Shown here one piece after another: positions 154 through 18,054 of a stretch of 64,000 nucleotides of DNA; position 1 is the stretch's first letter; the number at the start of each line of letters is the position of its first letter. The notes beneath the pieces are model-generated. The model was not told where the DNA came from and did not search any database. It was given only the letters and a program-made list of their open reading frames with translations. This DNA comes from Promicromonospora panici (GTDB taxonomy: Bacteria > Actinomycetota > Actinomycetes > Actinomycetales > Cellulomonadaceae). The stretch covers positions 124,001 to 188,000 of the forward strand of contig NZ_UWYY01000005.1 in NCBI RefSeq assembly GCF_900608595.1. The letters run 5' to 3'. The position numbers were made by a program, and so were the translations under genes.

Positions 154-1461
154 ATGCCCACCCATCCGGTGCCCCGGGCGCCCGGCGGACGGCGGCTGTC
201 CCGCCGCACCTTCCTCGCGGTCGCGGGGATCAGCGTGGCGGGCGCCCTCGCCGCCTGCTCCGGCGCCCCGACGGGGACCAAGCACCTGCGCCTGTCCTCG
301 TGGAACATCCCGCTGGACCTGGAGTCCTACCAGGTGATCGCCGACGAGTTCGTGGCGGCCCATCCCGGCACCAGCGTGGCGGTGGAGGTGACGACCGGCC
401 AGTTCCACCAGTGGTTCATCACGCGGCTCGCCGCGGACCTCGCGCCGGACATCATCCGGATCACCCCGCAGCAGATCGGCCGGTACGCGGCCAACGGCAG
501 CCTGGTGGACCTGACGGGCGCGGTACCCGCTGAGTACCAGGACGACTACTCGGAACCGTTCTGGGCGATCGGCGCACGGGAGGACGGCCTGTACGGCGTC
601 TTCCAGCACACCGACAACTTCATCACCTACTACGACCGGCGGGTGGTCCAGCAGATCGGCGTGACGCCGCCGTCGTCGCTGGCGGACGCCTGGCACTGGG
701 ACGAGTTCCTGGAGATCGCCCGCGAGGCCCGGAAGGTGACGGGCGGCTACGGCTTCGGCTACGGCTGGGGCGGCGCGGAGACGGCGTACCGCTGGCTGCC
801 GATCGTCTACCAGAACGGCGGCACCTTCCTCGGGGAGGACGGCGAGACGCCGTCGATGGACAGCGCCGAGGCGGTCGGGGCCCTGGACTTCGGGCGCCGC
901 TGGTACAGCGAGGGACTCGTGTCCCCGGCGAACATGAGCAAGTCGGGCGGCACGCCGGGCCGCGATCTCTTCCTCACCGGGCAGATCGGCCTCCTGCTCG
1001 ACAACCCGGAGTCCATAGCGCCGCTGGACGAGGGCCTGCCCGACGAGTGGGGCACCGCGCCCATGATCCGCAACACCGGCGAGGCGTCCGACCTGGGCGG
1101 CAACGCGCTGGCGGTCACGAAGTCCAGCAAGCATCCGGAGCTCGCGGCCGAGCTGGTCGCGTACATCACCAGCCGGGCCAACGTCGTCGAGTTCTGCAAG
1201 CGGGGCAACTGGCTGCCCGCCCGGTCCTCGCTCGACGCCGCGGACATCGGCTACGAGCGGCACGCCGGCACCATGCAGCAGTTCATCGACCAGGCGACCA
1301 CCATCCCCCTGTCGATGGTGCGTGCGGAGTCGGGCCAGTACTTCAGCTCCCTCAACTCGGTGCTCGCCGACTACCTCGACCTGTGCTTCCTCGGCGAGCT
1401 CTCCCCCGCCGAGTGCGGCACCCAGATGACGGAGGCGATGCGCAGTGTCACCACGCGATGA
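154..1461 (+). CDS. ABC sugar transporter, substrate-binding lipoprotein
   Basis: The 435-residue protein is an extracellular solute-binding protein of the bacterial family 1 (maltose/multiple-sugar, CUT1) type. Residues 17-21 read RRTFL, a twin-arginine motif, and LAAC with Cys35 is a lipobox, so it is probably exported by Tat and lipid-anchored. The ATG at 154 follows an AGAGGAG ribosome site; an in-frame GTG at 91 lies inside the upstream hairpin and is less likely. Two permease genes follow directly, the first overlapping it by 17 bases. The sugar bound cannot be read from sequence. Confidence 0.92.
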   Translation: MPTHPVPRAPGGRRLSRRTFLAVAGISVAGALAACSGAPTGTKHLRLSSWNIPLDLESYQVIADEFVAAHPGTSVAVEVTTGQFHQWFITRLAADLAPDIIRITPQQIGRYAANGSLVDLTGAVPAEYQDDYSEPFWAIGAREDGLYGVFQHTDNFITYYDRRVVQQIGVTPPSSLADAWHWDEFLEIAREARKVTGGYGFGYGWGGAETAYRWLPIVYQNGGTFLGEDGETPSMDSAEAVGALDFGRRWYSEGLVSPANMSKSGGTPGRDLFLTGQIGLLLDNPESIAPLDEGLPDEWGTAPMIRNTGEASDLGGNALAVTKSSKHPELAAELVAYITSRANVVEFCKRGNWLPARSSLDAADIGYERHAGTMQQFIDQATTIPLSMVRAESGQYFSSLNSVLADYLDLCFLGELSPAECGTQMTEAMRSVTTR

Positions 1462-2356
1462 AGTCCTCACGCGCCGGCCCGACGACGGCGCACGCCAGCC
1501 CCGCTGGGCGCCCTACCTGTTCGTCGGGCCGGCGGGCCTGCTCTTCCTCGCCTTCTCCCTGCTCCCCATCGTCATCGCGATCACCTTGTCCTTCCAGGAC
1601 ACGGCGACGCTCGGCGACGGCGAGTGGGTCGGCGCCGCGAACTACGAGACGATGCTCGGCGACCCGCTGCTGCGCACCGCACTGCTCAACACCCTGGTCT
1701 TCACGGTCGGCACCGTGCCGACGGCGATGGCGATCGGGTTGGCCCTCGCGGTCGCGCTGAACCGCCCGCTGCCGGGGCGCGGCCTGCTGCGGGCGCTGTT
1801 CTTCGTCCCGATGATCGCCGCCGGCGTCGTGGTCGGCGTCATCATGTCGTGGATCTTCAACCCGGACTACGGCGTCGCGAACAACGCGCTCGCCGCCCTG
1901 GGACTGTCCGGCCTGCCCTGGCTGACCTCCCCGAACACCGCGATGTTCACGCTGATCGCCGTGGTCGTGTGGACGCGGATCGGGTTCTGCATGGTGATCT
2001 ACCTCGGCGCCCTGCAGTCCATCCCGGCGGAGCTGCGCGAGGCCGCTGCGATCGACGGCGCGAGCGGCTGGCAGCGGCTGAGGCGCCTCACGGTGCCGAT
2101 GCTGGCGCCGACCACGTCGATCCTGCTCATCCTCAACGTCGTGTTCTCGCTCCAGTCGTTCGACGTCATCTACGTGATGACCGGCGGCGGGCCCGGGTTC
2201 TCGACGACGGTCCTGATCCAGTACGTGTTCCGGTCCGCGTTCGCCGACGCGCGCATGGGCTACGCAGCGGCGCTCGGCCTGCTGCTCGTGCTGATCCTGC
2301 TGGTGTTCACGCTGCTGCGGCAGCGCGCCACGAAGCGAGCGGAGGAGCTCCTGTGA
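1445..2356 (+). CDS. ABC sugar transporter permease, MalF-like
   Basis: This 303-residue membrane protein is the first permease of the importer. It has about six hydrophobic segments and the cytoplasmic EAA loop EAAAIDGASGW near residues 199-209, which docks the ATPase. It starts at GTG 1445, nine bases after GGAGG (1431-1435), inside the end of the binding-protein gene. Its own stop overlaps the next GTG start (GTGA), so the three genes are translationally coupled. No ATPase gene is present; CUT1 systems of this kind usually use a shared MsiK. Confidence 0.92.
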   Translation: MSPRDEVLTRRPDDGARQPRWAPYLFVGPAGLLFLAFSLLPIVIAITLSFQDTATLGDGEWVGAANYETMLGDPLLRTALLNTLVFTVGTVPTAMAIGLALAVALNRPLPGRGLLRALFFVPMIAAGVVVGVIMSWIFNPDYGVANNALAALGLSGLPWLTSPNTAMFTLIAVVVWTRIGFCMVIYLGALQSIPAELREAAAIDGASGWQRLRRLTVPMLAPTTSILLILNVVFSLQSFDVIYVMTGGGPGFSTTVLIQYVFRSAFADARMGYAAALGLLLVLILLVFTLLRQRATKRAEELL

Positions 2357-3243
2357 CTGTTCCCAACACCCGAGCCCGGGTCGCCCGGCCCGCGCGCCCC
2401 ACCCCGCCCCTGCGGGAACGGCACGCCCGGCGACGGCGCTGGCTGCTCACCGCCGTCCTGACCGCCGTCGCGATCGTCGTCGTCTTCCCGCTGTACTGGA
2501 TGATCGTCTCCGCGCTCACGCCCGGCGGGCAGTCGCAGAGCAGCGAGTTCTACCTCTGGCCCGACGCACCCACCATCAACAACTTCACCGAGGTGTTCGC
2601 CACGCAGCCCGTGTGGCAGTGGCTCGGCAACTCGGCGTTCGTCGCGTCCGTCGGCACGGCGCTGTCGGTCTGCGTGTCGCTGGGCGCCGGGTACGCCCTG
2701 GCCAAGTACCGGTTCCGCGGCCGCGGCCTGCTGTACGCCGCGTTCCTGGTGACGATCATGATCCCGATCCAGGTCACGCTCGTGCCCGCGTTCCTCGTGA
2801 CGGCGCGGCTCGGGCTGGTGGACTCGCCGTGGGCCGTCATCCTGCCGACCCTGTTCGACGTCGTGGGCATCTTCATCGCCCGCCAGTTCATGCTCGGCGT
2901 GCCCGACGCGCTCATCGAGGCCGCCCGGCTGGACGGCGCCGGCGAGCTGCGGACGTTCTTCCGCGTGGTGCTCCCGACCTGCTGGCCGCTGGTGGGAGTG
3001 CTCGTCATCCTCGGCTTCATGAACCGGTGGAACGACTTCCTGTGGCCGCTCGTGGTGCTGCAGGGCAACGAGAGCCTGACGGTGCCCGTCGGGCTGTCCA
3101 CGCTGACCAACAACCCGGCGTTCAGCTCGCCCTGGGGCGCGGTGATGGCGGTGGCCACGGTCGCCGTCGTGCCGCTGCTCGTGGTGTTTCTCGTCTTCCA
3201 GCGGACGTTCGTCCAGGGGATCGCGAGCACGGGGATCAAGTAG
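2353..3243 (+). CDS. ABC sugar transporter permease, MalG-like
   Basis: The second permease has 296 residues. A basic N-terminal tail is followed by six predicted membrane segments and an EAA loop, EAARLDGAGELR, near residues 189-200. GTG 2353 overlaps the preceding TGA. The C-terminus QGIASTGIK is typical of MalG-type permeases. Its TAG ends one base before the stop codon of the convergent permease gene on the other strand, leaving no room for a terminator between two importer operons. Confidence 0.92.
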   Translation: MTVPNTRARVARPARPTPPLRERHARRRRWLLTAVLTAVAIVVVFPLYWMIVSALTPGGQSQSSEFYLWPDAPTINNFTEVFATQPVWQWLGNSAFVASVGTALSVCVSLGAGYALAKYRFRGRGLLYAAFLVTIMIPIQVTLVPAFLVTARLGLVDSPWAVILPTLFDVVGIFIARQFMLGVPDALIEAARLDGAGELRTFFRVVLPTCWPLVGVLVILGFMNRWNDFLWPLVVLQGNESLTVPVGLSTLTNNPAFSSPWGAVMAVATVAVVPLLVVFLVFQRTFVQGIASTGIK

Positions 3244-3244
3244 G

Positions 3245-4066
3245 TCACTTCATCCCCGAGATCCGCACCCCGGCGACGACGAACCGCTGGAAGAACAGCA
3301 GCAGGACGATCGTCGGCAGGGCCGCGAGCGTGGAGCCTGCCATCAGCAGGCCCCACTCGTTGCCCCGCTCCGACCGGAACGTGCCCAGGAACTGCATGAT
3401 CTGCATGAGGCCCGGGTCCGTGATCGTGAGGATGGGCCAGACGTAGGCGTTCCAGAAGGCGAGGAACGACCCGATGCCCACGACGACGAACACCGAGCCC
3501 GACTGCGGCACGAAGATCTTCGTGAAGATCTGCCATCGCGTGGCGCCGTCGATACGGGCGGCCTCCTCCAGCGCCATCGGCATGCCCAGGTAGAACTGGC
3601 GGATGAAGAACATCTGCACCGACGACGCGACCCCCGGGATGATGAGGACGGCCAGCGTGTCGAGCATGCCAAGCTCGGTGACGACGACGAAAGACGTCAG
3701 CAGGATCGCCATCATCGGCACGAACATCGGCAGGATGCAGTACACCCACCAGAACCGCTTCCAGGCGAAGTCGAGGCGGGCCAGCGCGTACGCGGCCATC
3801 GAGTTCACGACGAGGCTGGCCGCCGTGAAGATGACCGCGCCCAGCAGCGTCACCCCCATGGACCGGGCGAACTGCGGGTCGGCGAGGATGTCGACGTAGT
3901 TCTGGACGTTCCAGATCTCGGGGAAGAACTGGAACGGGCTGGAGAGCACCTCCGTCTTGCCCTTGAAACCCGCGATCGCCATCCAGGCGAGCGGGAACAG
4001 GACGCTCAGCGAGATGAGCACGAGCAGCACCCACTTGACGAGGGCGGTGCGCAGAGATCTGGTCAT
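3245..4066 (-). CDS. ABC sugar transporter permease, MalG-like (second importer)
   Basis: This 273-residue permease is the last gene of the minus-strand importer operon. The ATG at 4066 overlaps the previous stop (ATGA). It carries the EAA loop EEAARIDGATRWQIF and ends GVRISGMK, as MalG proteins do. It probably forms the heterodimeric channel with the neighbouring MalF-like protein. The frame stays open upstream to 4867, but that is an overlap with the neighbouring permease and not part of this protein. Confidence 0.92.
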   Translation of the reverse strand: MTRSLRTALVKWVLLVLISLSVLFPLAWMAIAGFKGKTEVLSSPFQFFPEIWNVQNYVDILADPQFARSMGVTLLGAVIFTAASLVVNSMAAYALARLDFAWKRFWWVYCILPMFVPMMAILLTSFVVVTELGMLDTLAVLIIPGVASSVQMFFIRQFYLGMPMALEEAARIDGATRWQIFTKIFVPQSGSVFVVVGIGSFLAFWNAYVWPILTITDPGLMQIMQFLGTFRSERGNEWGLLMAGSTLAALPTIVLLLFFQRFVVAGVRISGMK

Positions 4067-5010
4067 CCGTCGATCGCTTTCTCGGAGCTGATGAGCCGGA
4101 ACACGAGGGCCGAGATGCCGCCGAGCACGAGGAACAGCAGCAGGGCGGCGGTCAGCGAGAAGCTCACCGAGTACTCGCTCCCGTCCCGGAAGGTGTTGAA
4201 GATGAACAGGTTGGGCGTGGTCGTCGCGTTGACCGGCCCGCCGTTCGTCATGATCAGCGGCAGGTCGAGCATCTGGAGCGCCGCCACCGTGCCCGTGACG
4301 AACAGGTACAGGAGCACGTTCTTCAGCAGCGGGAGGGTGATGTACCACGTGCGCTGGACGAACGACGCGCCGTCGAGCCGGGCCGACTCGTAGTAGCTGT
4401 CCGGGATGTCGAGCAGGCCCGCCAGCATGATCAGCGTCGTCAGGCCCAGGCCCAGCCAGATGCCCGGGACGGCGATGGCCGGCAGCGCGAGCGCCGGGCT
4501 GTTCAGCCACGCGACCGGCCCGGCGTTGAGCAGCCCCAGCAGCCAGTTGGCCAGCCCCTGGTCCTGGTAGATGAAGACGAAGAGCACCGACGCGACCACC
4601 GTGGAGACCACGGCGGGCACGTAGATGGTCGTCTTCAGGAAGCTCGCCATACGCACGCTCAGGGTCTTGATGAAGCTCGCGATCAGCAGCGAGACGAACA
4701 TCCCGGCCGGGACGACCAGCACCGCGTAGTAGAGGCCGACGCCGAGCGACGCCCAGAACCGCTCGTCCTCGAGCACGTACCGGTAGAACTGCAGGCCGAC
4801 GAACTCGGGGGCCTGGTAGAAGCTGATCTCGAACCCGCTGAGGTAGAACGCGTAGACGAGCGGCCACATCACGAAGATCCCGAGCAGGATCACCATGGGC
4901 GCGATCATCAGGTAGGCGGTGAGGTCGTCCCGTGGGCGCGAGCGCTTCACAGCAGGCGCCTCGGCAGCGCCGAGCATGGTGCGCGGCTGCTGGTCCGCGG
5001 TGATGGACAC
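4063..5010 (-). CDS. ABC sugar transporter permease, MalF-like (second importer)
   Basis: The 315-residue protein has an N-terminal cytoplasmic tail, about six membrane segments and an EAA-type loop, ESARLDGASFVQ, followed by a proline-rich turn. The start is taken as GTG 5010 (reading VSITADQQ), which follows AGGGAG. It sits 11 bases downstream of the binding-protein stop. The order binding protein, MalF, MalG is that of a standard CUT1 operon. Confidence 0.9.
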   Translation of the reverse strand: MSITADQQPRTMLGAAEAPAVKRSRPRDDLTAYLMIAPMVILLGIFVMWPLVYAFYLSGFEISFYQAPEFVGLQFYRYVLEDERFWASLGVGLYYAVLVVPAGMFVSLLIASFIKTLSVRMASFLKTTIYVPAVVSTVVASVLFVFIYQDQGLANWLLGLLNAGPVAWLNSPALALPAIAVPGIWLGLGLTTLIMLAGLLDIPDSYYESARLDGASFVQRTWYITLPLLKNVLLYLFVTGTVAALQMLDLPLIMTNGGPVNATTTPNLFIFNTFRDGSEYSVSFSLTAALLLFLVLGGISALVFRLISSEKAIDG

Positions 5011-5021
5011 TGTGCTTCTCC

Positions 5022-6353
5022 CTAGTCCGTCGCCGCGCCCGCGAGCTTCTGCTTGTCGATGACGTCGTTGATCGCGTCGTCCGCGGTCTGCAGCGCTCCG
5101 TCGACGTCGGTGGTGCCCTTCATGGCCGACTCGAGCGCCGTCCCCAAGGCCATCGCGATGTCGTACGGGTACGCGGGCTCGGCCTGGCCGTAGGGCACTA
5201 TCTCGTCGGAGATGACCGCCATGAACGGGTCGGCGGAGGCCTCGGGGTCGTCCGCGAGCACCTCGTCGACCGAGTCGCGGACCGTGTACTTCGAGTAGCC
5301 CGTCTCCTTGAAGAAGCCGGCCATGATCTCCGGGTCGCCCGCCAGCAGGTACTCGATGAACCGGGCCGCCTCCTCGGGTGCCTCGGACTTCGAGTCGAGT
5401 GTGAGCGTCCAGCCGCCGAGGGTCGCCGTCGTCTTCGTCAGGTCGCCGTCGATTGACGGGAACGGGGCCACCATGGTCTTGTCGACGACGTCCGGGAAGT
5501 CGTTCTTGAGCTGGCCGACCACCCACGAGCCACCCTGCATCATCGCCACCTCGCCCTCGCCGTACGGCTGGCCGTCCGCGTAGGCCACCTTGGGCTGCTG
5601 CGGGATGAGGCCCTCCTGGTAGAGCTCCTTGTAGAAGTTCGCGAGGTCCGCGAAGCACGGTTCGGTCGCCCGGCCCGCCGACCAGTCGTCGGCGATCGGC
5701 AGGTACCCACAGGCGTTGAGCTGCAGGCCCCAGCTCGACCAGCTCAGGTCGGCCGCGGTCGACGCGACGGTCATCCCCTTGACGTCGCCCTTCGTCAGGG
5801 CCTTCGACCACTCGAGCAGCTCGTCCCAGGTCTCGGGCGGGCTGTCCGGGTCGAGGCCCGCCTCCTTCGCGAGGTCGGTCCGGTAGTACAGGACCGTGGA
5901 GGGCTCCACGAGCATCGGGTACGCGTAGTGCTGGTCGTCCACGGTGACGAACGGGGCGACGTTCTCCTTGACGTCGTCGAAGGCCTCGGCCGGGAGGAGC
6001 TCGTCCAGCGGGGCGAACTTGCCCTCCGCGACGCCCGGCTTGATGCTGCCGTAGTTCGTCGTGGCGACGTCCGGCTGCTTGCCCGCGGCCTGCGCCGCCT
6101 GCAGCTTCTGCTCCCACGTGTCAGCGGGCACGACCTGGAGGTCGACGGTGATCTCGTCCTGCGAGGCGTTGAACGCCTCAACGTTCTCCTTGAACCAGGC
6201 CTGCTGGTAGTCCTCGAACTTCTGCTGCCAGAACGTGACGTGCACCCGGCCGTCCGCCGCCTGGCTGCCGCCGTTCCCGCACGCGGCGAGGCCGAAGGCC
6301 GTGACGACGGCGGCCGCGACTCCGATGGCGCGGCGTGATCGCTTGCTGAACAT
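5022..6353 (-). CDS. ABC sugar transporter, substrate-binding lipoprotein (second importer)
   Basis: A 443-residue solute-binding protein with a basic N-terminus, a hydrophobic signal and the lipobox GLAAC followed by GNGGS. The ATG at 6353 has a good GAGGAG ribosome site. Family 1 features include the opening strand RVHVTFWQQKF and the internal Trp-rich face (LSWSSWG, GGSWVVGQL) that usually stacks on sugars. The gene begins 68 bases after the stop of the DUF4185 gene on the same strand, so the two are probably co-transcribed, and the importer would then carry the DUF4185 product. Confidence 0.92.
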   Translation of the reverse strand: MFSKRSRRAIGVAAAVVTAFGLAACGNGGSQAADGRVHVTFWQQKFEDYQQAWFKENVEAFNASQDEITVDLQVVPADTWEQKLQAAQAAGKQPDVATTNYGSIKPGVAEGKFAPLDELLPAEAFDDVKENVAPFVTVDDQHYAYPMLVEPSTVLYYRTDLAKEAGLDPDSPPETWDELLEWSKALTKGDVKGMTVASTAADLSWSSWGLQLNACGYLPIADDWSAGRATEPCFADLANFYKELYQEGLIPQQPKVAYADGQPYGEGEVAMMQGGSWVVGQLKNDFPDVVDKTMVAPFPSIDGDLTKTTATLGGWTLTLDSKSEAPEEAARFIEYLLAGDPEIMAGFFKETGYSKYTVRDSVDEVLADDPEASADPFMAVISDEIVPYGQAEPAYPYDIAMALGTALESAMKGTTDVDGALQTADDAINDVIDKQKLAGAATD

Positions 6354-6420
6354 GGGTATCTCCTCGTGGTGTGAACTCGTGAGTGATTCGCTGTGGTCCG
6401 CGTGCGCGGTCGTCGCGCCG

Positions 6421-7590
6421 TCAGTCCCTGGCCAGCTCGGCCCGGTACCAGAACACGTTGTACGGATCCCAGATCGACAGGGCGAAGTAGATGGTCCGCC
6501 CGCCGTCCTCCGTGTAGCGGGGAAGCATGTAGGGCGCGTACGGCCCCGGGACCTCGGTGGCGCCGACGAGCTCGAACGGCTCGCCCCACGGGCCCCAGGG
6601 GGACAGTCCCTCGCGCAGGACGATGCCGCGGCCCTCGGCGAGGTAGGTCATGATCCAGCGGTCGAGGTGGTCGTTCCAGACCACGGAGAGCTCGCCGACG
6701 GTGTCGTCGAGCACGAGGGCCGCGTCCACCGGGTCGGCGGCCCAGCGCGGGGCGGCGTCGGCGCCGCTGCCCGCGCCGCCGTCGGCCAGGCCCGCGAAGT
6801 ACTGCCAGGCCGCGGGATCCTCCACCTGCGCGGCCGGCACCCGGGCGAGCGAGACGCCGCCGAACCGCCCGTGCGTGACGCCCCAGACGTAGAGCCAGTC
6901 CCGGCCGCCGACGGTCACGTGGGCCGGGCTGATCTGCACGAAGCCGGACTCGCCGCCCCATCGGGGCGCGTCCAGCTTCTCCCAGGTCTGCCCCTCGTCG
7001 GTCGACTTCGCGAGGCCCGCATGGTTGACCTCCCACTCGCCCGGCGTCCCCCACTGCCGTACCGACATGTAGTGCAGGTACATCCCGGCATCGGTGGCGA
7101 AGCCGTGGGTGGGGATGACGGTGATCTCGTCGCCGTCGACCTTCTTGGAAGCCAGCAGCTCCTTCGCGACTCCGGCGTCGTCGAGGATCATCCCCTCGAT
7201 CGTGATGCCGTCCGACGGGTCGGCGTCCGTGGTCCAGCCCAGGGTGTTCGAGCGCCAGAGGGAGCCCCCGCCGCCCGTCATGTCGTCGTCGCGCTCGCCG
7301 AAGGTGTCGCCGAACGCGAACCACACCTTGCCGTCGGCCTCGAACATCGAGCCGAGGTCCGTGAAGTTCACCGAGTACTGCGTGGTGTCGCCGGGGCCTT
7401 CGGCGCCGGTGATCTGTCCGACGCGTTCGACGTCGGTGACGTCCGTGAGCACGAATCCCTCGTCGCGGCTGTCGAGGCCGTCGGCGCCGTCCGGCCCGGC
7501 GACGGCAGTGGAGCCGACACCTGCGACCAGCGACAGCGCGCCGACCGCGGGGGCGACGACGAGCGCGGTACGTCCGAGCCTGCGTGCCAT
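6421..7590 (-). CDS. Secreted DUF4185 protein, candidate GH183 endo-D-arabinanase
   Basis: The 389-residue protein starts at ATG 7590 after a perfect AAGGAGG; an in-frame ATG at 7650 would fall inside the promoter. A signal peptide of about 30 residues ends near STAVAG. The mature part shows five-bladed-propeller-like DUF4185 features: DLGSMFEADGKVWFAFGDT, WRSNTLGWTTDADPSDG, LHYMSVRQWGTPGEW and a C-terminal WDPYNVFWYRAEL. Some DUF4185 proteins are endo-D-arabinanases (CAZy GH183) that cut the D-arabinan of mycobacterial cell walls. Whether this one shares that activity is inference. It heads an operon with a sugar importer and has an operator in its promoter. Confidence 0.85.
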   Translation of the reverse strand: MARRLGRTALVVAPAVGALSLVAGVGSTAVAGPDGADGLDSRDEGFVLTDVTDVERVGQITGAEGPGDTTQYSVNFTDLGSMFEADGKVWFAFGDTFGERDDDMTGGGGSLWRSNTLGWTTDADPSDGITIEGMILDDAGVAKELLASKKVDGDEITVIPTHGFATDAGMYLHYMSVRQWGTPGEWEVNHAGLAKSTDEGQTWEKLDAPRWGGESGFVQISPAHVTVGGRDWLYVWGVTHGRFGGVSLARVPAAQVEDPAAWQYFAGLADGGAGSGADAAPRWAADPVDAALVLDDTVGELSVVWNDHLDRWIMTYLAEGRGIVLREGLSPWGPWGEPFELVGATEVPGPYAPYMLPRYTEDGGRTIYFALSIWDPYNVFWYRAELARD

Positions 7591-7621
7591 GAATCCTCCT
7601 TGATCGATGGCGATAGTCCCC

Positions 7622-7650
7622 AGATTGGCAGAAACCGATTTCATCGTCAA
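7622..7650 (-). promoter_or_regulatory. Operator-bearing promoter of the DUF4185 operon
   Basis: Read on the minus strand, TTGACG (7650-7645) and CAATCT (7627-7622) are separated by 17 bases. The spacer contains GAAACCGATTTC (7631-7642), a near-palindrome of LacI-family type. A bound repressor would sit between the -35 and -10 boxes. Confidence 0.65.
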
Positions 7651-7696
7651 GTGCCGTGCTTGGCGGCCGCCTGGGCCTCACCTAGCGACGCCGAAC

Positions 7697-7725
7697 TTGA
7701 AACCGGTTTCTATTCTGGCTACGGT
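7697..7725 (+). promoter_or_regulatory. Operator-bearing promoter of the 331-residue gene
   Basis: TTGAAA (7697-7702) and TACGGT (7720-7725) are 17 bases apart. The perfect palindrome GAAACCGGTTTC (7699-7710) overlaps the -35 box and the spacer. It differs by one base from the site in the divergent promoter 68 bases away, so one LacI-family repressor probably controls both transcripts and could loop between them. Confidence 0.65.
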
Positions 7726-7771
7726 GTGCGCGGGTGACGACGCCCCTCCCGAGCGAGGTCTGGAAGGTCTG

Positions 7772-8767
7772 ATGGCACACACCACCGCCGGCACCGACGG
7801 CTTCTCCGAACCGTGGCTCCGCCCCGGGGGCGCGGCCCTTGCCGAACCACGCTGGGGCTTCGCCGACGGCCTGCAGGTGGGCCTGCACCCGCTGCGCGGC
7901 CCGCGCGGGCTGCTGCGCGTCTACGCCCCCTACCTCGGGCACCCGCGCGACCGGCTGCTCAACTTCATCGCCGTCGAGCCGATCCCTCAGGGGGCGACGG
8001 AGCGCGGCTACTCGGAGCTGGAGAACAGCGCCCTGGACGACGCGCCGGGCAAGCGGTTCTGGAGCGCCGACACCCCGGACGACCCGGCCCCGCGCGACCC
8101 GCGGCGCCCGGCCCGCGGTGTGACCGAGCGGATCGACGGCGTCGAGCACCTGACCGTCTACGTGCACAGCGAGCGCTTCGAGAACGGCGCCGAAGTGGTG
8201 GTGCGGGTCCGTTTCCGGGCCGACCGCCCGCACGAGGTGTCGGTCGCGACGTCGCTCCGGGAGGGCTCGGTCCCGCTGGAGTCGTGCGTGCTCACTGCGA
8301 CGATGGGGAACTTCGCCCGGCTGCGGCGGCTCCACCTGCGCGACCGGGTGGTGACGCCCGCCGAGCTGTGGCCCGGGTTCACCGGTACCGGCTTCGCCGC
8401 CCACGGCGTTTTCAAGCGCGCGGACCTGGTCGAGTCCGGCGGGACGATCAGCGTATGGGCGACGCCGGACGAAGCCGCCCCGCACGAGGCCGAGCACGCC
8501 GAGGGGACGGCCGAGCACTGGCGGTACACCGGCGAGAAGGCGGTACAGGGCTGGCGCGTCCCCGAACCGAGCGACGAGCTCCGGGTCCTGGTCAACGGCC
8601 GCTGGGCCTACTGGGCGAGCGCGGCACCCGTCCCCGGCGGCGTCTCCTACGAGAACTTCGAGGTGGTCGAGCCCTTCCGGGACGGGCAGGAGCTCGTCTA
8701 CTGGGTCGAGCCCTTCCGGTCCGACGACGACGTCGCACCCGCAGCGGCGCGGCATCTGGGGCCCTGA
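7772..8767 (+). CDS. Conserved protein of unknown function, divergent from the DUF4185 operon
   Basis: The 331-residue protein starts at ATG 7772, with a weak GGAAGG upstream. It has no signal peptide or membrane segment, so it is probably cytoplasmic. Recurrent short strands with many aromatics (PRGLLRVYAPYLGH, FENGAEVVVRVRF, VLVNGRWAYWA, VSYENFEVVEPF) suggest an all-beta sandwich protein. I do not recognise a named family. The shared operator-type promoter region makes a role in handling the same sugar, for example an intracellular glycosidase or isomerase, plausible but unproven. Confidence 0.8.
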   Translation: MAHTTAGTDGFSEPWLRPGGAALAEPRWGFADGLQVGLHPLRGPRGLLRVYAPYLGHPRDRLLNFIAVEPIPQGATERGYSELENSALDDAPGKRFWSADTPDDPAPRDPRRPARGVTERIDGVEHLTVYVHSERFENGAEVVVRVRFRADRPHEVSVATSLREGSVPLESCVLTATMGNFARLRRLHLRDRVVTPAELWPGFTGTGFAAHGVFKRADLVESGGTISVWATPDEAAPHEAEHAEGTAEHWRYTGEKAVQGWRVPEPSDELRVLVNGRWAYWASAAPVPGGVSYENFEVVEPFRDGQELVYWVEPFRSDDDVAPAAARHLGP

Positions 8768-8823: not shown

Positions 8824-9450
8824 GTGACCCCGCGCAGGCAGCAGATCCTGAGCACGGCAGCCGACCTGTTCGCCGACCGTGGCTTCCACGGCGTCTCCAT
8901 GGGAGACATCGGCGCCGCCGTCGGTGTCTCCGGCCCCGCCCTGTACAAGCACTTCGCGGGCAAGGAGGACATCCTCGGGCAGTGCCTGCTGCACGCCTCC
9001 GACCAGCTCCTCGCGGGCGCCCGGGAGCTGCTGTCCGACGGCGGTGCACGCACCGGCGTCGGACAGCCGGCTCCTGAGGCGGAGGCCGCCGTCGGACAGC
9101 CGGAACCGGACCCCGCCGCGGCCGCGGCGGCCCTGGAGGCGCTGATCGCCCGGCACGCGGACTTCGCGCTCGACAACCCGGCCCTGATCGTCGTGCAGGA
9201 GCGGGAGTGGGGCGCGCTCGGCGCGGACACCCGGGCGCAGGTCCGCAAGCGGCAGCTCGCCTACGTAGACGTATGGTGCGACGCGCTGCGGCCGCTGCGC
9301 CCCGATCTGTCGGCACCGCAGGCGCGGGCCGCGGTGCAGGCGGCGTTCGGCCTGCTGAACTCGACCCCGCACAGCGCGCGCATCGGCCGCGACGCCATGC
9401 GCCGTCTCCTGACGACCATGGCCCGCGCGGCCCTCCTCCCCTCCCCGTGA
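8824..9450 (+). CDS. TetR-family transcriptional regulator
   Basis: Residues 1-50 form a TetR helix-turn-helix (RRQQILSTAADLFADRGF, then the recognition helix VSGPALYKHFAGKEDIL) in a 208-residue protein. A Pro/Glu/Ala-rich insert near residues 75-100 precedes the ligand domain. The start is GTG 8824. It converges on the acyl-CoA dehydrogenase gene with a three-base gap. Regulators of this kind often control neighbouring acyl-CoA genes, but its target cannot be read here. Confidence 0.88.
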   Translation: MTPRRQQILSTAADLFADRGFHGVSMGDIGAAVGVSGPALYKHFAGKEDILGQCLLHASDQLLAGARELLSDGGARTGVGQPAPEAEAAVGQPEPDPAAAAAALEALIARHADFALDNPALIVVQEREWGALGADTRAQVRKRQLAYVDVWCDALRPLRPDLSAPQARAAVQAAFGLLNSTPHSARIGRDAMRRLLTTMARAALLPSP

Positions 9451-14382: not shown

Positions 14383-15698
14383 CCAGGGTCCTCCTCGGGG
14401 ACGGGGTCGAGCTCGAAGGGCAACAGGTCCACCGCCTGGCGGAACCGGTCGACGAGCTGGTCGTGGTCGTCGGCCCCCAGGTAGACGCAGCCCAGCTTGA
14501 ACCGGTAGCTGTCCTGGTTGGGCAGGTCGGAGAGCCGGTCGCCGGGCGCCACCTGGAAGGTGACCTTCGTGTCCGGCAGGGCGCGTTGGAGGGCGGCCAG
14601 CTCCCTCTCGCCGGGGATCCTGCGCACGACCGCGTCGGCGTCGTGGAAGATGTGCCACTGGCCAGCGACGGCGAACCGGCCCTGCCGGTACGGCATCTCC
14701 GGGGGCTCGCCCAGCGCGACGTCGATGGCCAGCTCATGGTTGGACGTCCCGTCGACCTTGAGGAAGAGCTCGGTGTGGGACTGCGAGATGCGCGTGTTCA
14801 CCTCGATGAGTCGCAGGACGTCGGTCTCCCGGTCCCACATGTACTCGACGTTGAAGGCCCCGTCGTCATAGCCGATGTGTCGCAGGAAACGTTCCGCGGT
14901 GTCGACCATCCGCTGCTGCACCTCGGCGGGGACGGTCACGGCGGGGTAGTCCAGGTGGTCGATGCTGTGCCCGGCCCGATCCTTGTGCATGTCGACGATG
15001 CCGTGCACGCTGAACCGGCCCCGCGCGACCACACCCTCGGGGGCGACCTGGACCCCGGTGATGATCTCCTCGGCGAGGCAGGTGTTCCCGTCCGCTCCGC
15101 GGATGGCCTCCGGGAGCTCCACCCGGCTCAGCACCTGGTTGAAGGCGTCGCCGACGTCGGTGATCTCCGACCGGATCTGGTCGAGGGCCGACTCGAACTC
15201 CTCGTCGTCGTGGATCTCGAACCCCAGGTTCGACGAGTGCGCCTTGACCGGCTTCACCCAGAACGGGTAGGACAGGTGCACCTGGTCCCGGGCGTCGTCG
15301 GCGAACGGGTCGAACGCGGCGAACCCGGGGACCACCTCGGGGACCGACTGCCACTGCTCCAGCCGGCTCCAGTACTTGTGCTCGCACTTGAGCATGCTCG
15401 TCACGGACGGAGCGGGGATGCCGTGCTCGTGGGACAGGATGGGCGCCAGGAGCGAGCTCGGAAAGTCCCAGTGGCACACGATCGCGTCGATCGGCCCCGG
15501 GAAGTCGGCGAGCTGGGCGCGCGCCTGGTCGAGCAGCGCATCGAAGTCGTACTCGGTGTCGCGGACGAGCCTCTCGTAGTCGAGCAGCGAGCGGAACGTG
15601 AAGCGCGCCGCGTGCCGCATGCGTCCCAGCTCCTCCCGCTGGAGGTCGGTCATTCCCAGCACGAACACGTTGCACGTCCGGCCGTCGGGTCTGCCCAT
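14379..15698 (-). CDS. ATP-grasp domain protein, probable carboxylate-amine ligase
   Basis: The 439-residue protein has the ATP-grasp order: a Rossmann-like N-terminal part, YPFWVKPVKAHSSNLGFE (ATP-binding Lys), CLAEEIITGVQ (adenine clamp), and FNVEYMWDRETDVLRLIEVNTRIS, with the Glu and Asn that hold Mg-ATP. Such enzymes activate a carboxylate as acyl phosphate and couple it to an amine. The substrate is unknown. ATG 15698 has no clear ribosome site. Coupling to a dipeptidyl-peptidase-like hydrolase suggests the two make or recycle a peptide or amide. Confidence 0.85.
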   Translation of the reverse strand: MGRPDGRTCNVFVLGMTDLQREELGRMRHAARFTFRSLLDYERLVRDTEYDFDALLDQARAQLADFPGPIDAIVCHWDFPSSLLAPILSHEHGIPAPSVTSMLKCEHKYWSRLEQWQSVPEVVPGFAAFDPFADDARDQVHLSYPFWVKPVKAHSSNLGFEIHDDEEFESALDQIRSEITDVGDAFNQVLSRVELPEAIRGADGNTCLAEEIITGVQVAPEGVVARGRFSVHGIVDMHKDRAGHSIDHLDYPAVTVPAEVQQRMVDTAERFLRHIGYDDGAFNVEYMWDRETDVLRLIEVNTRISQSHTELFLKVDGTSNHELAIDVALGEPPEMPYRQGRFAVAGQWHIFHDADAVVRRIPGERELAALQRALPDTKVTFQVAPGDRLSDLPNQDSYRFKLGCVYLGADDHDQLVDRFRQAVDLLPFELDPVPEEDPG

Positions 15699-15778
15699 GC
15701 TTTCGACGTAACCACGAGCCCCGCTCGCCCGCAACGGACGCGTGCCGGCTCGCCGTCCCGGACTTGCCGGCGCCGGGG

Positions 15779-16906
15779 CTACAGCTCGATCGAGTACATG
15801 CGGGAGCCCGACGTCTTGACGTAGCCCAGGCTCGCGTACAGGCCGTGAGCACCGCTCGGGTTGGCCGTGTCGACGTCGAGGGCCGCGTACTGCATGCCCT
15901 CGGCGGCGAACGCCCGCATGCCCTCGGCGAGCGCTGCGAGGGCGACCTTGCGCCCCCGGTACCCGCGACGTGCGCCGAGGATGTCGGTGTACCCGAAGGA
16001 GTATCCGCGCACCGCGAAGTCCTCGGTGTACCGGGCGGCCAGCTCGTAGCCCACCACCAGCGGCTCCCCGGCGCGGAGCGCGGCGGCGGTGTCGGCGTCG
16101 GTGTCCGGCGAGGCCAGGAGCGCGTCGACGTCGGGCGCCTCGTCGATCACGAGGAACGACCACTCGGGCGCGAACCCGGCGCGCTGCGCCCACTGCTCGC
16201 GGGTCTGCGGCTGGCTGCCCCAGTGGTCCCGGAAGGCGTCGTTGTGCGCCAGGCGGGTGGGCTCGTCCAGGTCGGTGGACCACGGCACGAGGCGCAGCGA
16301 CCCGGCCAGCGCCACCTCGGGCACCGGGGCGGCGTCCGGCCCCGTGAGCGGCCGCGCGAGGTCGGAGTAGTAGCGGCGCACGCCGAACCCGGCTCGCTCA
16401 TACAGCCGGTGCTTCGTCGCGGGGGCGTCGTCGTCGGCGAACGTGGCGATCCGGGCAGGCACGTCCTTGCCCGACGCCGCCAGCAGCTGCCGGGCGCGGC
16501 CCGTCTCCCAGGCGAACAGCTCGCGGCCGATGCCTTCGCCGCGGCGGTCCGGGTGCACGCCGCCCCAGCAGAACGCGCGAGCCACGGTCACGTCGCCGGG
16601 CGGGCACTCGACCTGGGCCCAGGCCACGAGGACGCCGTCGTCCTCCGGGCGGGTGGAGAACCCGAGCAGGGAGTCCGCCGCCATGTCGCGCCACTCGCCG
16701 TCGAAGATCTCCTCGATCTCCTCCAGCGTCTCGACGTACGGCTGGGCGTCGGCCGGGGCGATGCGGTTGCGCAGCGCGAGCCACGCGGGCGCGTCCTCGC
16801 GGGTGGCGGCGCGCCAGGTCAGGCCGCCGGCCATGGGCAGGGTCAGGGTCGCCGGCGCGGCGGCGCGCTCGGCGATCGGGGCGAGGGTGGGGGTCTGCGT
16901 GGTCAT
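15779..16906 (-). CDS. Tandem double-GNAT acetyltransferase (copy 1)
   Basis: A 375-residue protein with two GNAT folds. The first contains GGVHPDRRGEGIGRELFAW, a typical acetyl-CoA pyrophosphate loop (R-x-x-G-x-G/A), near residues 115-135. The second contains GARRGYRGRKVALAALAEGM near 320, followed by LDVDTANPSGAHGLYASLGY. The layout recalls mycothiol synthase, but sequence and length do not prove that role. It is eight bases downstream of a close paralogue. Confidence 0.85.
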   Translation of the reverse strand: MTTQTPTLAPIAERAAAPATLTLPMAGGLTWRAATREDAPAWLALRNRIAPADAQPYVETLEEIEEIFDGEWRDMAADSLLGFSTRPEDDGVLVAWAQVECPPGDVTVARAFCWGGVHPDRRGEGIGRELFAWETGRARQLLAASGKDVPARIATFADDDAPATKHRLYERAGFGVRRYYSDLARPLTGPDAAPVPEVALAGSLRLVPWSTDLDEPTRLAHNDAFRDHWGSQPQTREQWAQRAGFAPEWSFLVIDEAPDVDALLASPDTDADTAAALRAGEPLVVGYELAARYTEDFAVRGYSFGYTDILGARRGYRGRKVALAALAEGMRAFAAEGMQYAALDVDTANPSGAHGLYASLGYVKTSGSRMYSIEL

Positions 16907-16914
16907 GGCGGTCC

Positions 16915-18054
16915 CTAGAGTTCGATCGAGTAGACGGTGGAGCCGTCGCTCTTGGTGTAGCCCAGCCGTGCGTACAGGGCGGGCGCCCCCGTCGGGTTGT
17001 CAGCGTCGACGTCGAGCTCGGCGTACTGCATGCCGTCGGCGGCGTAGACGTGCATGGCGTGCGTGAGCAGGGCGGCCGCGATGCGGCGTCCGCGGTACGC
17101 GCGGCGCACGCCCAGCAGGCCCGTGTAGCCCGCCGTGTACCCCTGCGACTCCCAGTCGTGCTCGTACCGCTCGGCCCGGTGCAGCCCGACGACGTATGGC
17201 GTGCCCGGGGCGACCGTCACGTCCCCCGGCTGCTCGGACTCGGATCCCTCGTACTCCACCGACTCGTCGACCACCACGAAGGACCACTCGGGCACGAAGT
17301 GGCTGCGGTGCGCCCGCCACGACTCGGCGGTCCGCGGCTGGCTGCCCCAGTGCTCGCGGAACGCGTCGTTGCGGGCCAGGCGCGCGGCGTCCTCCAGCGC
17401 GTCGGACCAGGGCAGCAGGCGCAGCGGCGGCTCGAGCCCGACGGCGGGCACCGGCGCGCTCAGGTCGCGGACCAGGTTGGCGAAGTAGCGGATCGGCTCG
17501 AACCCGCCGGCGCGCAGCAGTGCGCGGCGCTCGGCGGGGTCCGTGTCATCGGTGTGGACCGAGATCCGCGCGGGCAGGTGGTCGAGCAACGGGTCGCCGG
17601 CCGACGCCGCGAGCGCCTGCCGCGCACGTGCCGTCCCCCACGCGAGGAGCTCGGTGCCGATGCCCTCGCCGCGCCGGCTGGCGTGCACCCCGCCGTGCAC
17701 GGTGACCCGCAGGAGGCTGGCGCCGTCGGTCGGGAACCGCTCGGCCCAGGCGTAGGCCCGCATGGCGCCGTCGGCGTCGAGGCCGACCAGGGTGTCGGCG
17801 GCGGCGTCGAACACGGGGGCGTCGAAGCTCTCCGCGATCTCCTCGGGCGAGGTGAACCAGTCCCGGCCGTCGGCCTGCTCGACCGCGCGCAGGAGCTGCG
17901 CGAGCGCGGGCACGTCCTGCCGGGTCCAGGTCCGCCAGGTCAGGCCGCCCGCGGTGGGGACCGGCAGTGCGCGCGGCGCGGCGGCACGCGCGGCGATCGA
18001 GGGTCGCGAGGACTCGGACACGGCGGAAAGGCGGCCGGACGCGGGCGTGGACAT
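16915..18054 (-). CDS. Tandem double-GNAT acetyltransferase (copy 2)
   Basis: The 379-residue paralogue shares the architecture of the downstream gene: an N-terminal AGGLTWR stretch, a first GNAT loop GGVHASRRGEGIGTELLAWG, a HWGSQPRT segment, a second loop GVRRAYRGRRIAAALLTHAM and the shared end YSIEL. The two genes clearly arose by tandem duplication and then diverged. The substrate is unknown. Confidence 0.85.
   Translation of the reverse strand: MSTPASGRLSAVSESSRPSIAARAAAPRALPVPTAGGLTWRTWTRQDVPALAQLLRAVEQADGRDWFTSPEEIAESFDAPVFDAAADTLVGLDADGAMRAYAWAERFPTDGASLLRVTVHGGVHASRRGEGIGTELLAWGTARARQALAASAGDPLLDHLPARISVHTDDTDPAERRALLRAGGFEPIRYFANLVRDLSAPVPAVGLEPPLRLLPWSDALEDAARLARNDAFREHWGSQPRTAESWRAHRSHFVPEWSFVVVDESVEYEGSESEQPGDVTVAPGTPYVVGLHRAERYEHDWESQGYTAGYTGLLGVRRAYRGRRIAAALLTHAMHVYAADGMQYAELDVDADNPTGAPALYARLGYTKSDGSTVYSIEL

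What the first reader, a model, noticed from the sequence alone, without database searches (positions are those of the whole stretch)
6353..8767. DUF4185 enzyme, sugar importer and unknown protein under shared operators: possible D-arabinan scavenging locus
A secreted DUF4185 protein (the family that founded GH183 endo-D-arabinanases) heads the operon of a CUT1 importer. Facing it is a 331-residue protein of no recognised family. Both promoters carry nearly identical LacI-type sites, GAAACCGATTTC and GAAACCGGTTTC, exactly within a 17-base spacer or at the -35. This looks like a complete cut, import and process module for D-arabinose oligomers, perhaps from mycobacterial cell walls. The substrate is inference.
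Basis: partly seen in the sequence, partly recalled or inferred. Interest (0 to 1): 0.7.

Follow-up and report, generated by a model that had tools for sequence, protein, structure and literature searches.

The report
D-arabinan scavenging locus with unknown enzyme
This actinobacterium carries a gene set that very probably cuts, imports and digests the unusual sugar polymer of mycobacterial cell walls, and beside it sits a conserved, never-described protein that keeps turning up in such gene sets and has no known function.

Summary
The DUF4185 protein (6421-7590, minus) is a GH183 endo-D-arabinanase by sequence, predicted fold and active site: closest solved structure EndoMA1 (E 3e-51, Z 41), all three catalytic acids kept. 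The window misses part of the system. [quoted passage not shown] TGAAAYCGRTTTCA recurs 62 times in 28 related loci, against 0-2 expected, at the same promoters. So this is a LacI regulon of the D-arabinan utilisation type published for Microbacterium arabinogalactanolyticum (2023). It is not complete: the genome has no GH116 beta-D-arabinofuranosidase and no orthologue of the locus kinase. The new part is the 331-residue neighbour. It has no Pfam, NCBIfam or PDB sequence relative, yet 25 other actinobacteria have it, 20 of them inside D-arabinan loci, often directly behind the isomerase gene; more distant relatives occur in other phyla. Its predicted fold (pLDDT 94) is a galactose-mutarotase-like supersandwich without the mutarotase histidines. 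I read it as an uncharacterised intracellular enzyme of D-arabinan breakdown, more likely a glycosidase than a mutarotase.

The parts
6421..7590 (-). GH183 (DUF4185) secreted endo-D-arabinanase, 389 aa; active-site residues D78, D95, E300, R242, W180, P183, Y351
   Evidence: PF13810 297 bits; PDB 8hhv/8ic1 E 3e-51; active-site alignment; predicted fold Z 41 to EndoMA1
5022..6353 (-). CUT1 solute-binding lipoprotein of the importer
   Evidence: PF01547/PF13416; 81% identical to the Antribacter D-arabinan locus SBP, 39% to the Microbacterium one
4063..4998 (-). CUT1 permease A
   Evidence: PF00528; syntenic with D-arabinan loci
3245..4066 (-). CUT1 permease B
   Evidence: PF00528; syntenic with D-arabinan loci
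7772..8767 (+). 331-aa cytoplasmic protein of an undescribed family (P0003), predicted galactose-mutarotase-like supersandwich
   Evidence: no Pfam/NCBIfam/PDB sequence relative; 52 loci with relatives; AlphaFold2 pLDDT 94; fold comparison
7631..7642 (-). LacI-type operator in front of the GH183 gene
   Evidence: exact match; conserved motif TGAAAYCGRTTTCA in the same place in relatives
7699..7710 (+). LacI-type operator in front of the 331-aa gene
   Evidence: exact palindrome; conserved motif

Best explanation
This is the right half of a LacI-controlled D-arabinan utilisation locus. The secreted GH183 enzyme cuts D-arabinan (mycobacterial-type arabinogalactan or lipoarabinomannan) into oligomers, and the CUT1 lipoprotein and permeases import them. 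GH172 (just upstream of the window) removes alpha-D-arabinofuranose units in the cytoplasm, and the isomerase (also upstream) converts D-arabinose to D-ribulose. The LacI repressor encoded between isomerase and GH172 holds all four promoters shut until an arabinan-derived sugar appears. The 331-aa protein is an intracellular enzyme of the same pathway; I think it most likely hydrolyses a linkage or decoration in the imported oligomers (about 0.45), less likely it is a D-arabinose mutarotase (about 0.25). Shown here: family memberships, active-site residues, shared operators, synteny. Inferred: actual substrate, inducer, direction of regulation, and everything about the function of the 331-aa protein beyond its company. 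The confidence given is for the locus, not for the 331-aa protein.
For: GH183: Pfam; nearest solved proteins are the endo-D-arabinanase EndoMA1 and its D51N mutant; D33/D51/E243/R198/W138/P141/Y293 of EndoMA1 (roles from PMC10509167) are all conserved; the predicted fold matches 8ic1/8hhv at Z 41, then M. tuberculosis endo-D-arabinofuranase AraH2 at Z 23. Regulon: LacI, GH172 (PF11175, 298 bits) and a fucose-isomerase-like protein at C5:117736-121724, 2-6 kb upstream of the window, with operators at C5:119421 (29 bp before the isomerase) and 120567 (LacI/GH172) as well as the two in the window. Footprint: 62 operators in 28 loci against 0-2 in shuffles, in front of GH183, the 331-aa gene, SBP, GH172/LacI and the kinase/GH116/isomerase operon, and none in the five loci where the 331-aa gene lies outside such a locus. 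Synteny: Antribacter, Leifsonia and many Microbacterium loci have the same set, one of them (L015) with an EndoMA1-like gene, matching the published locus induced by D-arabinose and mycobacterial wall extract. 331-aa family: 20 of 25 other actinobacterial copies lie by these genes, 10 directly behind the isomerase gene with gaps of -4 to 62 nt; all 25 genomes hold GH172 against 36 of 395 in the class.
Against: No experiment. The window's GH183 is closest to the MIAR_33320 type (49%), which was not obtained soluble and has no measured activity; L292 of EndoMA1 is P350 here. The genome has no GH116 and only 29-30% identical FGGY kinases, so beta-linked ends and D-ribulose phosphorylation are unaccounted for. 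A complete-looking locus without the 331-aa gene exists (L074), so that gene is not essential everywhere.
Confidence: 0.85

Rival explanations
1. The 331-aa protein is a mutarotase that speeds anomer exchange of released D-arabinose for the isomerase, as YihR-type mutarotases do in sulfoquinovose operons.
For: Galactose-mutarotase-like supersandwich fold; mutarotases such as 3ty1, 3mwx, 4bze and 2cir at Z 11.6-13.1 and YeaD as best Foldseek hit; placed directly behind the isomerase, once with a 4-nt overlap; an operon precedent is known (PMC5902678).
Against: Known hexose mutarotases keep two His and one Glu (PMC5902678); here no His is invariant across the family, only H211 within the actinobacterial copies and in 67% of the rest. 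Profile comparison with aldose epimerases finds nothing (probability 0.1). Many supersandwich domains of glycosidases and lyases score as high or higher.
Confidence: 0.25
2. The 331-aa protein is a non-catalytic sugar-binding or scaffold protein.
For: All-beta fold, no known catalytic family.
Against: 26 polar or aromatic positions are at least 95% conserved across phyla, among them eight Asp/Glu, which is more typical of an enzyme; cytoplasmic in actinobacteria.
Confidence: 0.15
3. The GH183 enzyme serves remodelling of the bacterium's own wall or a phage-like lysis role rather than feeding.
For: DUF4185 proteins occur in mycobacteria and in phage lysis cassettes (PMC10115798).
Against: Clustered and sharing operators with an importer, GH172, isomerase and LacI; close relatives are in Promicromonosporaceae and Microbacteriaceae, which from general knowledge have no arabinogalactan wall; no other DUF4185 in the genome; the 331-aa marker gene is in 1 of 13 species of the genus, as expected of an accessory trait.
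Confidence: 0.05
4. The locus targets another furanoside (for example alpha-D-fructofuranosides or pilin D-arabinan) rather than mycobacterial-type walls.
For: GH172 also includes alpha-D-fructofuranosidases, and some DUF4185 enzymes cut Pseudomonas aeruginosa pilin oligosaccharides (PMC10115798, PMC10509167).
Against: GH183, GH172 and the isomerase together match the locus induced by D-arabinose and mycobacterial extract; GH172 here is 81% identical to that of the Microbacterium locus.
Confidence: 0.08

Closest known systems
D-arabinan utilisation locus of Microbacterium arabinogalactanolyticum (MIAR_33170-33320; PMC10509167)
   Same: GH183 next to a CUT1 importer, GH172 and isomerase; same gene neighbourhoods; a close relative of it also carries LacI and the 331-aa gene beside the fourth GH183
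   Different: Here one GH183 instead of four, no GH116, no locus-type kinase; an AraC-GH4-CUT1 block lies between GH172 and the D-arabinan importer
EndoMA1 (GH183, PDB 8hhv/8ic1)
   Same: Same family, all catalytic residues, same five-bladed propeller
   Different: 37-39% identity, no C-terminal binding module, L292 replaced by Pro
Dysgonomonas gadei PUL42 (PMC10115798)
   Same: GH183, GH172 and a fucose-type isomerase for D-arabinan
   Different: Gram-negative locus; no CUT1 importer or LacI regulon described in what I read; whether it holds a relative of the 331-aa protein was not checked
Galactose-mutarotase-like proteins (GalM, YeaD, sulfoquinovose mutarotase)
   Same: Overall supersandwich fold of the 331-aa protein; operon company of an isomerase
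   Different: No sequence or profile similarity; catalytic His pair not conserved

Membership tests
GH183 / DUF4185 endo-D-arabinanase | DUF4185 profile over its cut-off | tested here: met
   297 bits against cut-off 39.5
GH183 / DUF4185 endo-D-arabinanase | Two catalytic Asp plus essential Glu (D33, D51, E243 in EndoMA1) | tested here: met
   D78, D95, E300
GH183 / DUF4185 endo-D-arabinanase | Five-bladed propeller of the EndoMA1 type | tested here: met
   Z 41, rmsd 2.1-2.3 over 317 residues
GH183 / DUF4185 endo-D-arabinanase | Endo-cleavage of D-arabinan | not testable with these tools
   needs an enzyme assay
Actinobacterial D-arabinan utilisation locus | GH183, sugar importer and GH172 together | tested here: met
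Actinobacterial D-arabinan utilisation locus | GH116 exo-beta-D-arabinofuranosidase | tested here: not met
   no PF04685 match in the whole genome; 25 of 25 other actinobacterial carriers of the 331-aa gene have one
Actinobacterial D-arabinan utilisation locus | D-arabinose isomerase and kinase | tested here: inconclusive
   isomerase present (68-75% identical to those of other loci); kinase only as 29-30% paralogues elsewhere
LacI regulon | LacI gene with shared palindromic operators at the member promoters | tested here: met
Aldose 1-epimerase (mutarotase), for the 331-aa protein | Aldose_epim profile | tested here: not met
   no Pfam match for any of 49 members; hhalign probability 0.1
Aldose 1-epimerase (mutarotase), for the 331-aa protein | Conserved His pair and Glu | tested here: not met
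   no family-wide invariant His; H211 84% overall
Aldose 1-epimerase (mutarotase), for the 331-aa protein | Supersandwich fold | tested here: met
   shared with many glycosidase and lyase domains

The most novel reading that the evidence does not exclude
The 331-aa protein founds a new glycoside hydrolase family with a stand-alone supersandwich fold, acting inside the cell on D-arabinan oligomers (in this genome possibly covering for the missing GH116 beta-D-arabinofuranosidase), with apparently secreted relatives in Verrucomicrobia, Planctomycetes and Acidobacteria.
Probability: 0.35. Interest if true: 0.75.

Novelty: new variant of a known kind. Interest (0 to 1): 0.52.

Why it matters
D-arabinan-cutting enzymes are tools for dissecting the walls of mycobacteria. 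The finding supplies a defined LacI regulon that marks such loci, a natural locus without the beta-D-arabinofuranosidase, and a conserved protein family missing from Pfam and NCBIfam whose company makes its function directly testable on D-arabino-oligosaccharides.

Tried and rejected
The weak relative of the 331-aa protein in G316 overlaps pyrimidine-operon genes in a different frame and was dropped as chance. Operator-like sites on C6, C19, C25 and C31 are not next to D-arabinan genes that I could recognise, and the one at window 50977 lies at the start of a TetR-type gene: taken as chance or as other LacI sites. Phages and plasmids hold no relative of the 331-aa protein. Neighbour genes of the relatives outside actinobacteria are mixed, with GH172 or GH116 nearby in only 4 of 27 loci, so the link to D-arabinan is an actinobacterial result. 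A profile search of PDB with the family finds nothing credible. The idea that the 331-aa protein replaces GH116 in general was rejected: 25 of 25 other actinobacterial carriers have both. No structure coordinates could be inspected, so pocket geometry was not tested.
Full report
OBSERVATION. All stated features exist at the stated places. The gene at 6421-7590 (-) encodes a 389-aa protein with a signal sequence and a full DUF4185 domain. Behind it are the solute-binding lipoprotein and two permeases of a CUT1 importer. The divergent gene 7772-8767 (+) encodes 331 aa without a signal sequence and without any known family. Both operators are exact.

GH183. By sequence the nearest solved proteins are EndoMA1 of Microbacterium arabinogalactanolyticum (8hhv) and its D51N mutant (8ic1), E 3e-51 and 1e-50. 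The paper (PMC10509167) names D33 as nucleophile, D51 as acid/base, E243 as essential, and W138, P141, R198, L292 and Y293 as substrate contacts. All are kept here (D78, D95, E300, W180, P183, R242, Y351) except L292, which is P350. The predicted fold (mean pLDDT 82) matches EndoMA1 at Z 41 and M. tuberculosis AraH2 at Z 23; other propellers follow at 20-23. The protein is 49% identical to the fourth GH183 of a Microbacterium locus, the type that stayed uncharacterised in the paper, and 83% to that of Antribacter gilvus, a member of the Promicromonosporaceae.

THE LOCUS IS LARGER THAN THE WINDOW. The window is C5:124001-188000 of a 6.58 Mb genome. A search for the operator found two more sites just upstream, at C5:119421 and 120567. 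Reading that stretch gave a fucose-isomerase-like protein (L013 13736-15391, -), a LacI regulator (15489-16541, -), a GH172 protein (16471-17724, +; PF11175 298 bits), then an AraC regulator and a GH4 glycosidase that leads into the first CUT1 importer of the window (154-3243). The second importer (3245-6353) belongs to GH183. So the D-arabinan genes are split by an AraC-GH4-CUT1 block. The isomerase matches its Pfam models only weakly (below their cut-offs) but is 68-75% identical to the gene at the same place in the other D-arabinan loci.

REGULON. TGAAAYCGRTTTCA with at most 2 mismatches occurs 62 times in 28 related loci, against 0-2 in five Markov shuffles. The sites sit at the GH183/331-aa divergent promoter, before the SBP, between LacI and GH172, and before the kinase, GH116 or isomerase genes. 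Five loci in which the 331-aa gene is not among D-arabinan genes have none, which acts as a negative control. That LacI is the binder and a repressor is inference from its position and family.

COMPARISON WITH THE KNOWN SYSTEM. The published locus of M. arabinogalactanolyticum holds four GH183, a CUT1 importer, GH172, GH116, isomerase and kinase, and its genes are induced by D-arabinose and mycobacterial wall extract (PMC10509167). A close relative, Microbacterium sp. K24 (L015/L037), shows the same set with the 331-aa relative beside the last GH183. In the window's genome there is no GH116 at all and the FGGY kinases are only 29-30% identical to the locus kinase. The locus is therefore not complete as published ones are. 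Within the genus, 1 of 13 species has the 331-aa gene, as expected of a sporadic, probably acquired trait.

THE 331-AA FAMILY. A pattern search found 52 loci: 25 actinobacterial genomes other than the window's, at about 55-79% identity, and more distant ones (33-48%) in Verrucomicrobia, Planctomycetes, Acidobacteria, Armatimonadetes, Bacteroidota and others. Twenty of the 25 actinobacterial copies lie next to D-arabinan genes. In ten of them the gene directly follows the isomerase gene with gaps of -4 to 62 nt, and in Micromonospora it follows GH116. All 25 genomes hold GH172 and GH116, and all have a DUF4185 match, 24 of them over the cut-off; GH172 is in 36 of 395 genomes of the class. One full locus lacks the gene (L074). 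Several distant relatives begin with apparent signal peptides (by eye). None of 49 members has a credible Pfam or NCBIfam match.

FOLD AND LIKELY ACTION. AlphaFold2 on 49 sequences gives pLDDT 94. Comparison with PDB places it among galactose-mutarotase-like supersandwiches: domains of a blood-group galactosaminidase, alpha-mannosidases and alpha-galactosidases, a GH174 fucanase, polysaccharide lyases and mutarotases, all at Z about 12-15 (the word supersandwich is my reading of that list). Low Foldseek TM-scores (0.2-0.4) show that it is not close to any of them. Mutarotases keep two His and a Glu (PMC5902678); this family has no invariant His and no profile link to aldose epimerases. Twenty-six polar or aromatic positions are at least 95% conserved in both halves of the family, including E69, E82, E84, D89, E134, E155, E234 and E294. 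I therefore rank a glycosidase of a new family first (about 0.45), a mutarotase second (about 0.25), with other enzymes or a binding protein sharing the rest.

VERDICT. A well-supported D-arabinan scavenging locus of a known kind, in a reduced form, with one undescribed conserved protein that is the real point of interest.

Noticed in passing
window 154-3243 (+) with L013 17749-20000: A separate AraC-GH4-CUT1 operon, probably for an alpha-glycoside, is inserted between GH172 and the D-arabinan importer; the two CUT1 operons end tail to tail at 3243/3245.
   Followed up: partly
G000 whole genome: No GH116 and no orthologue of the D-arabinan locus kinase, although every other actinobacterial carrier of the 331-aa gene that was checked has GH116.
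   Followed up: yes
window 8824-9450 (+): TetR regulator resembling the SACE_7040 family (211 bits, below cut-off 250), next to an acyl-CoA dehydrogenase-like ORF and an enoyl-CoA hydratase-like ORF (the last two by eye).
   Followed up: no
L024 14116-16002 and L031 15263-17122: In two Microlunatus genomes the 331-aa relative lies outside the D-arabinan locus, 3-5 kb from an ORF that looks by eye like GH127.
   Followed up: no
L063: A Cytophagaceae contig has three GH172 genes, an FGGY kinase, the 331-aa relative and GH116 in one stretch: a possible Bacteroidota version of the system.
   Followed up: partly
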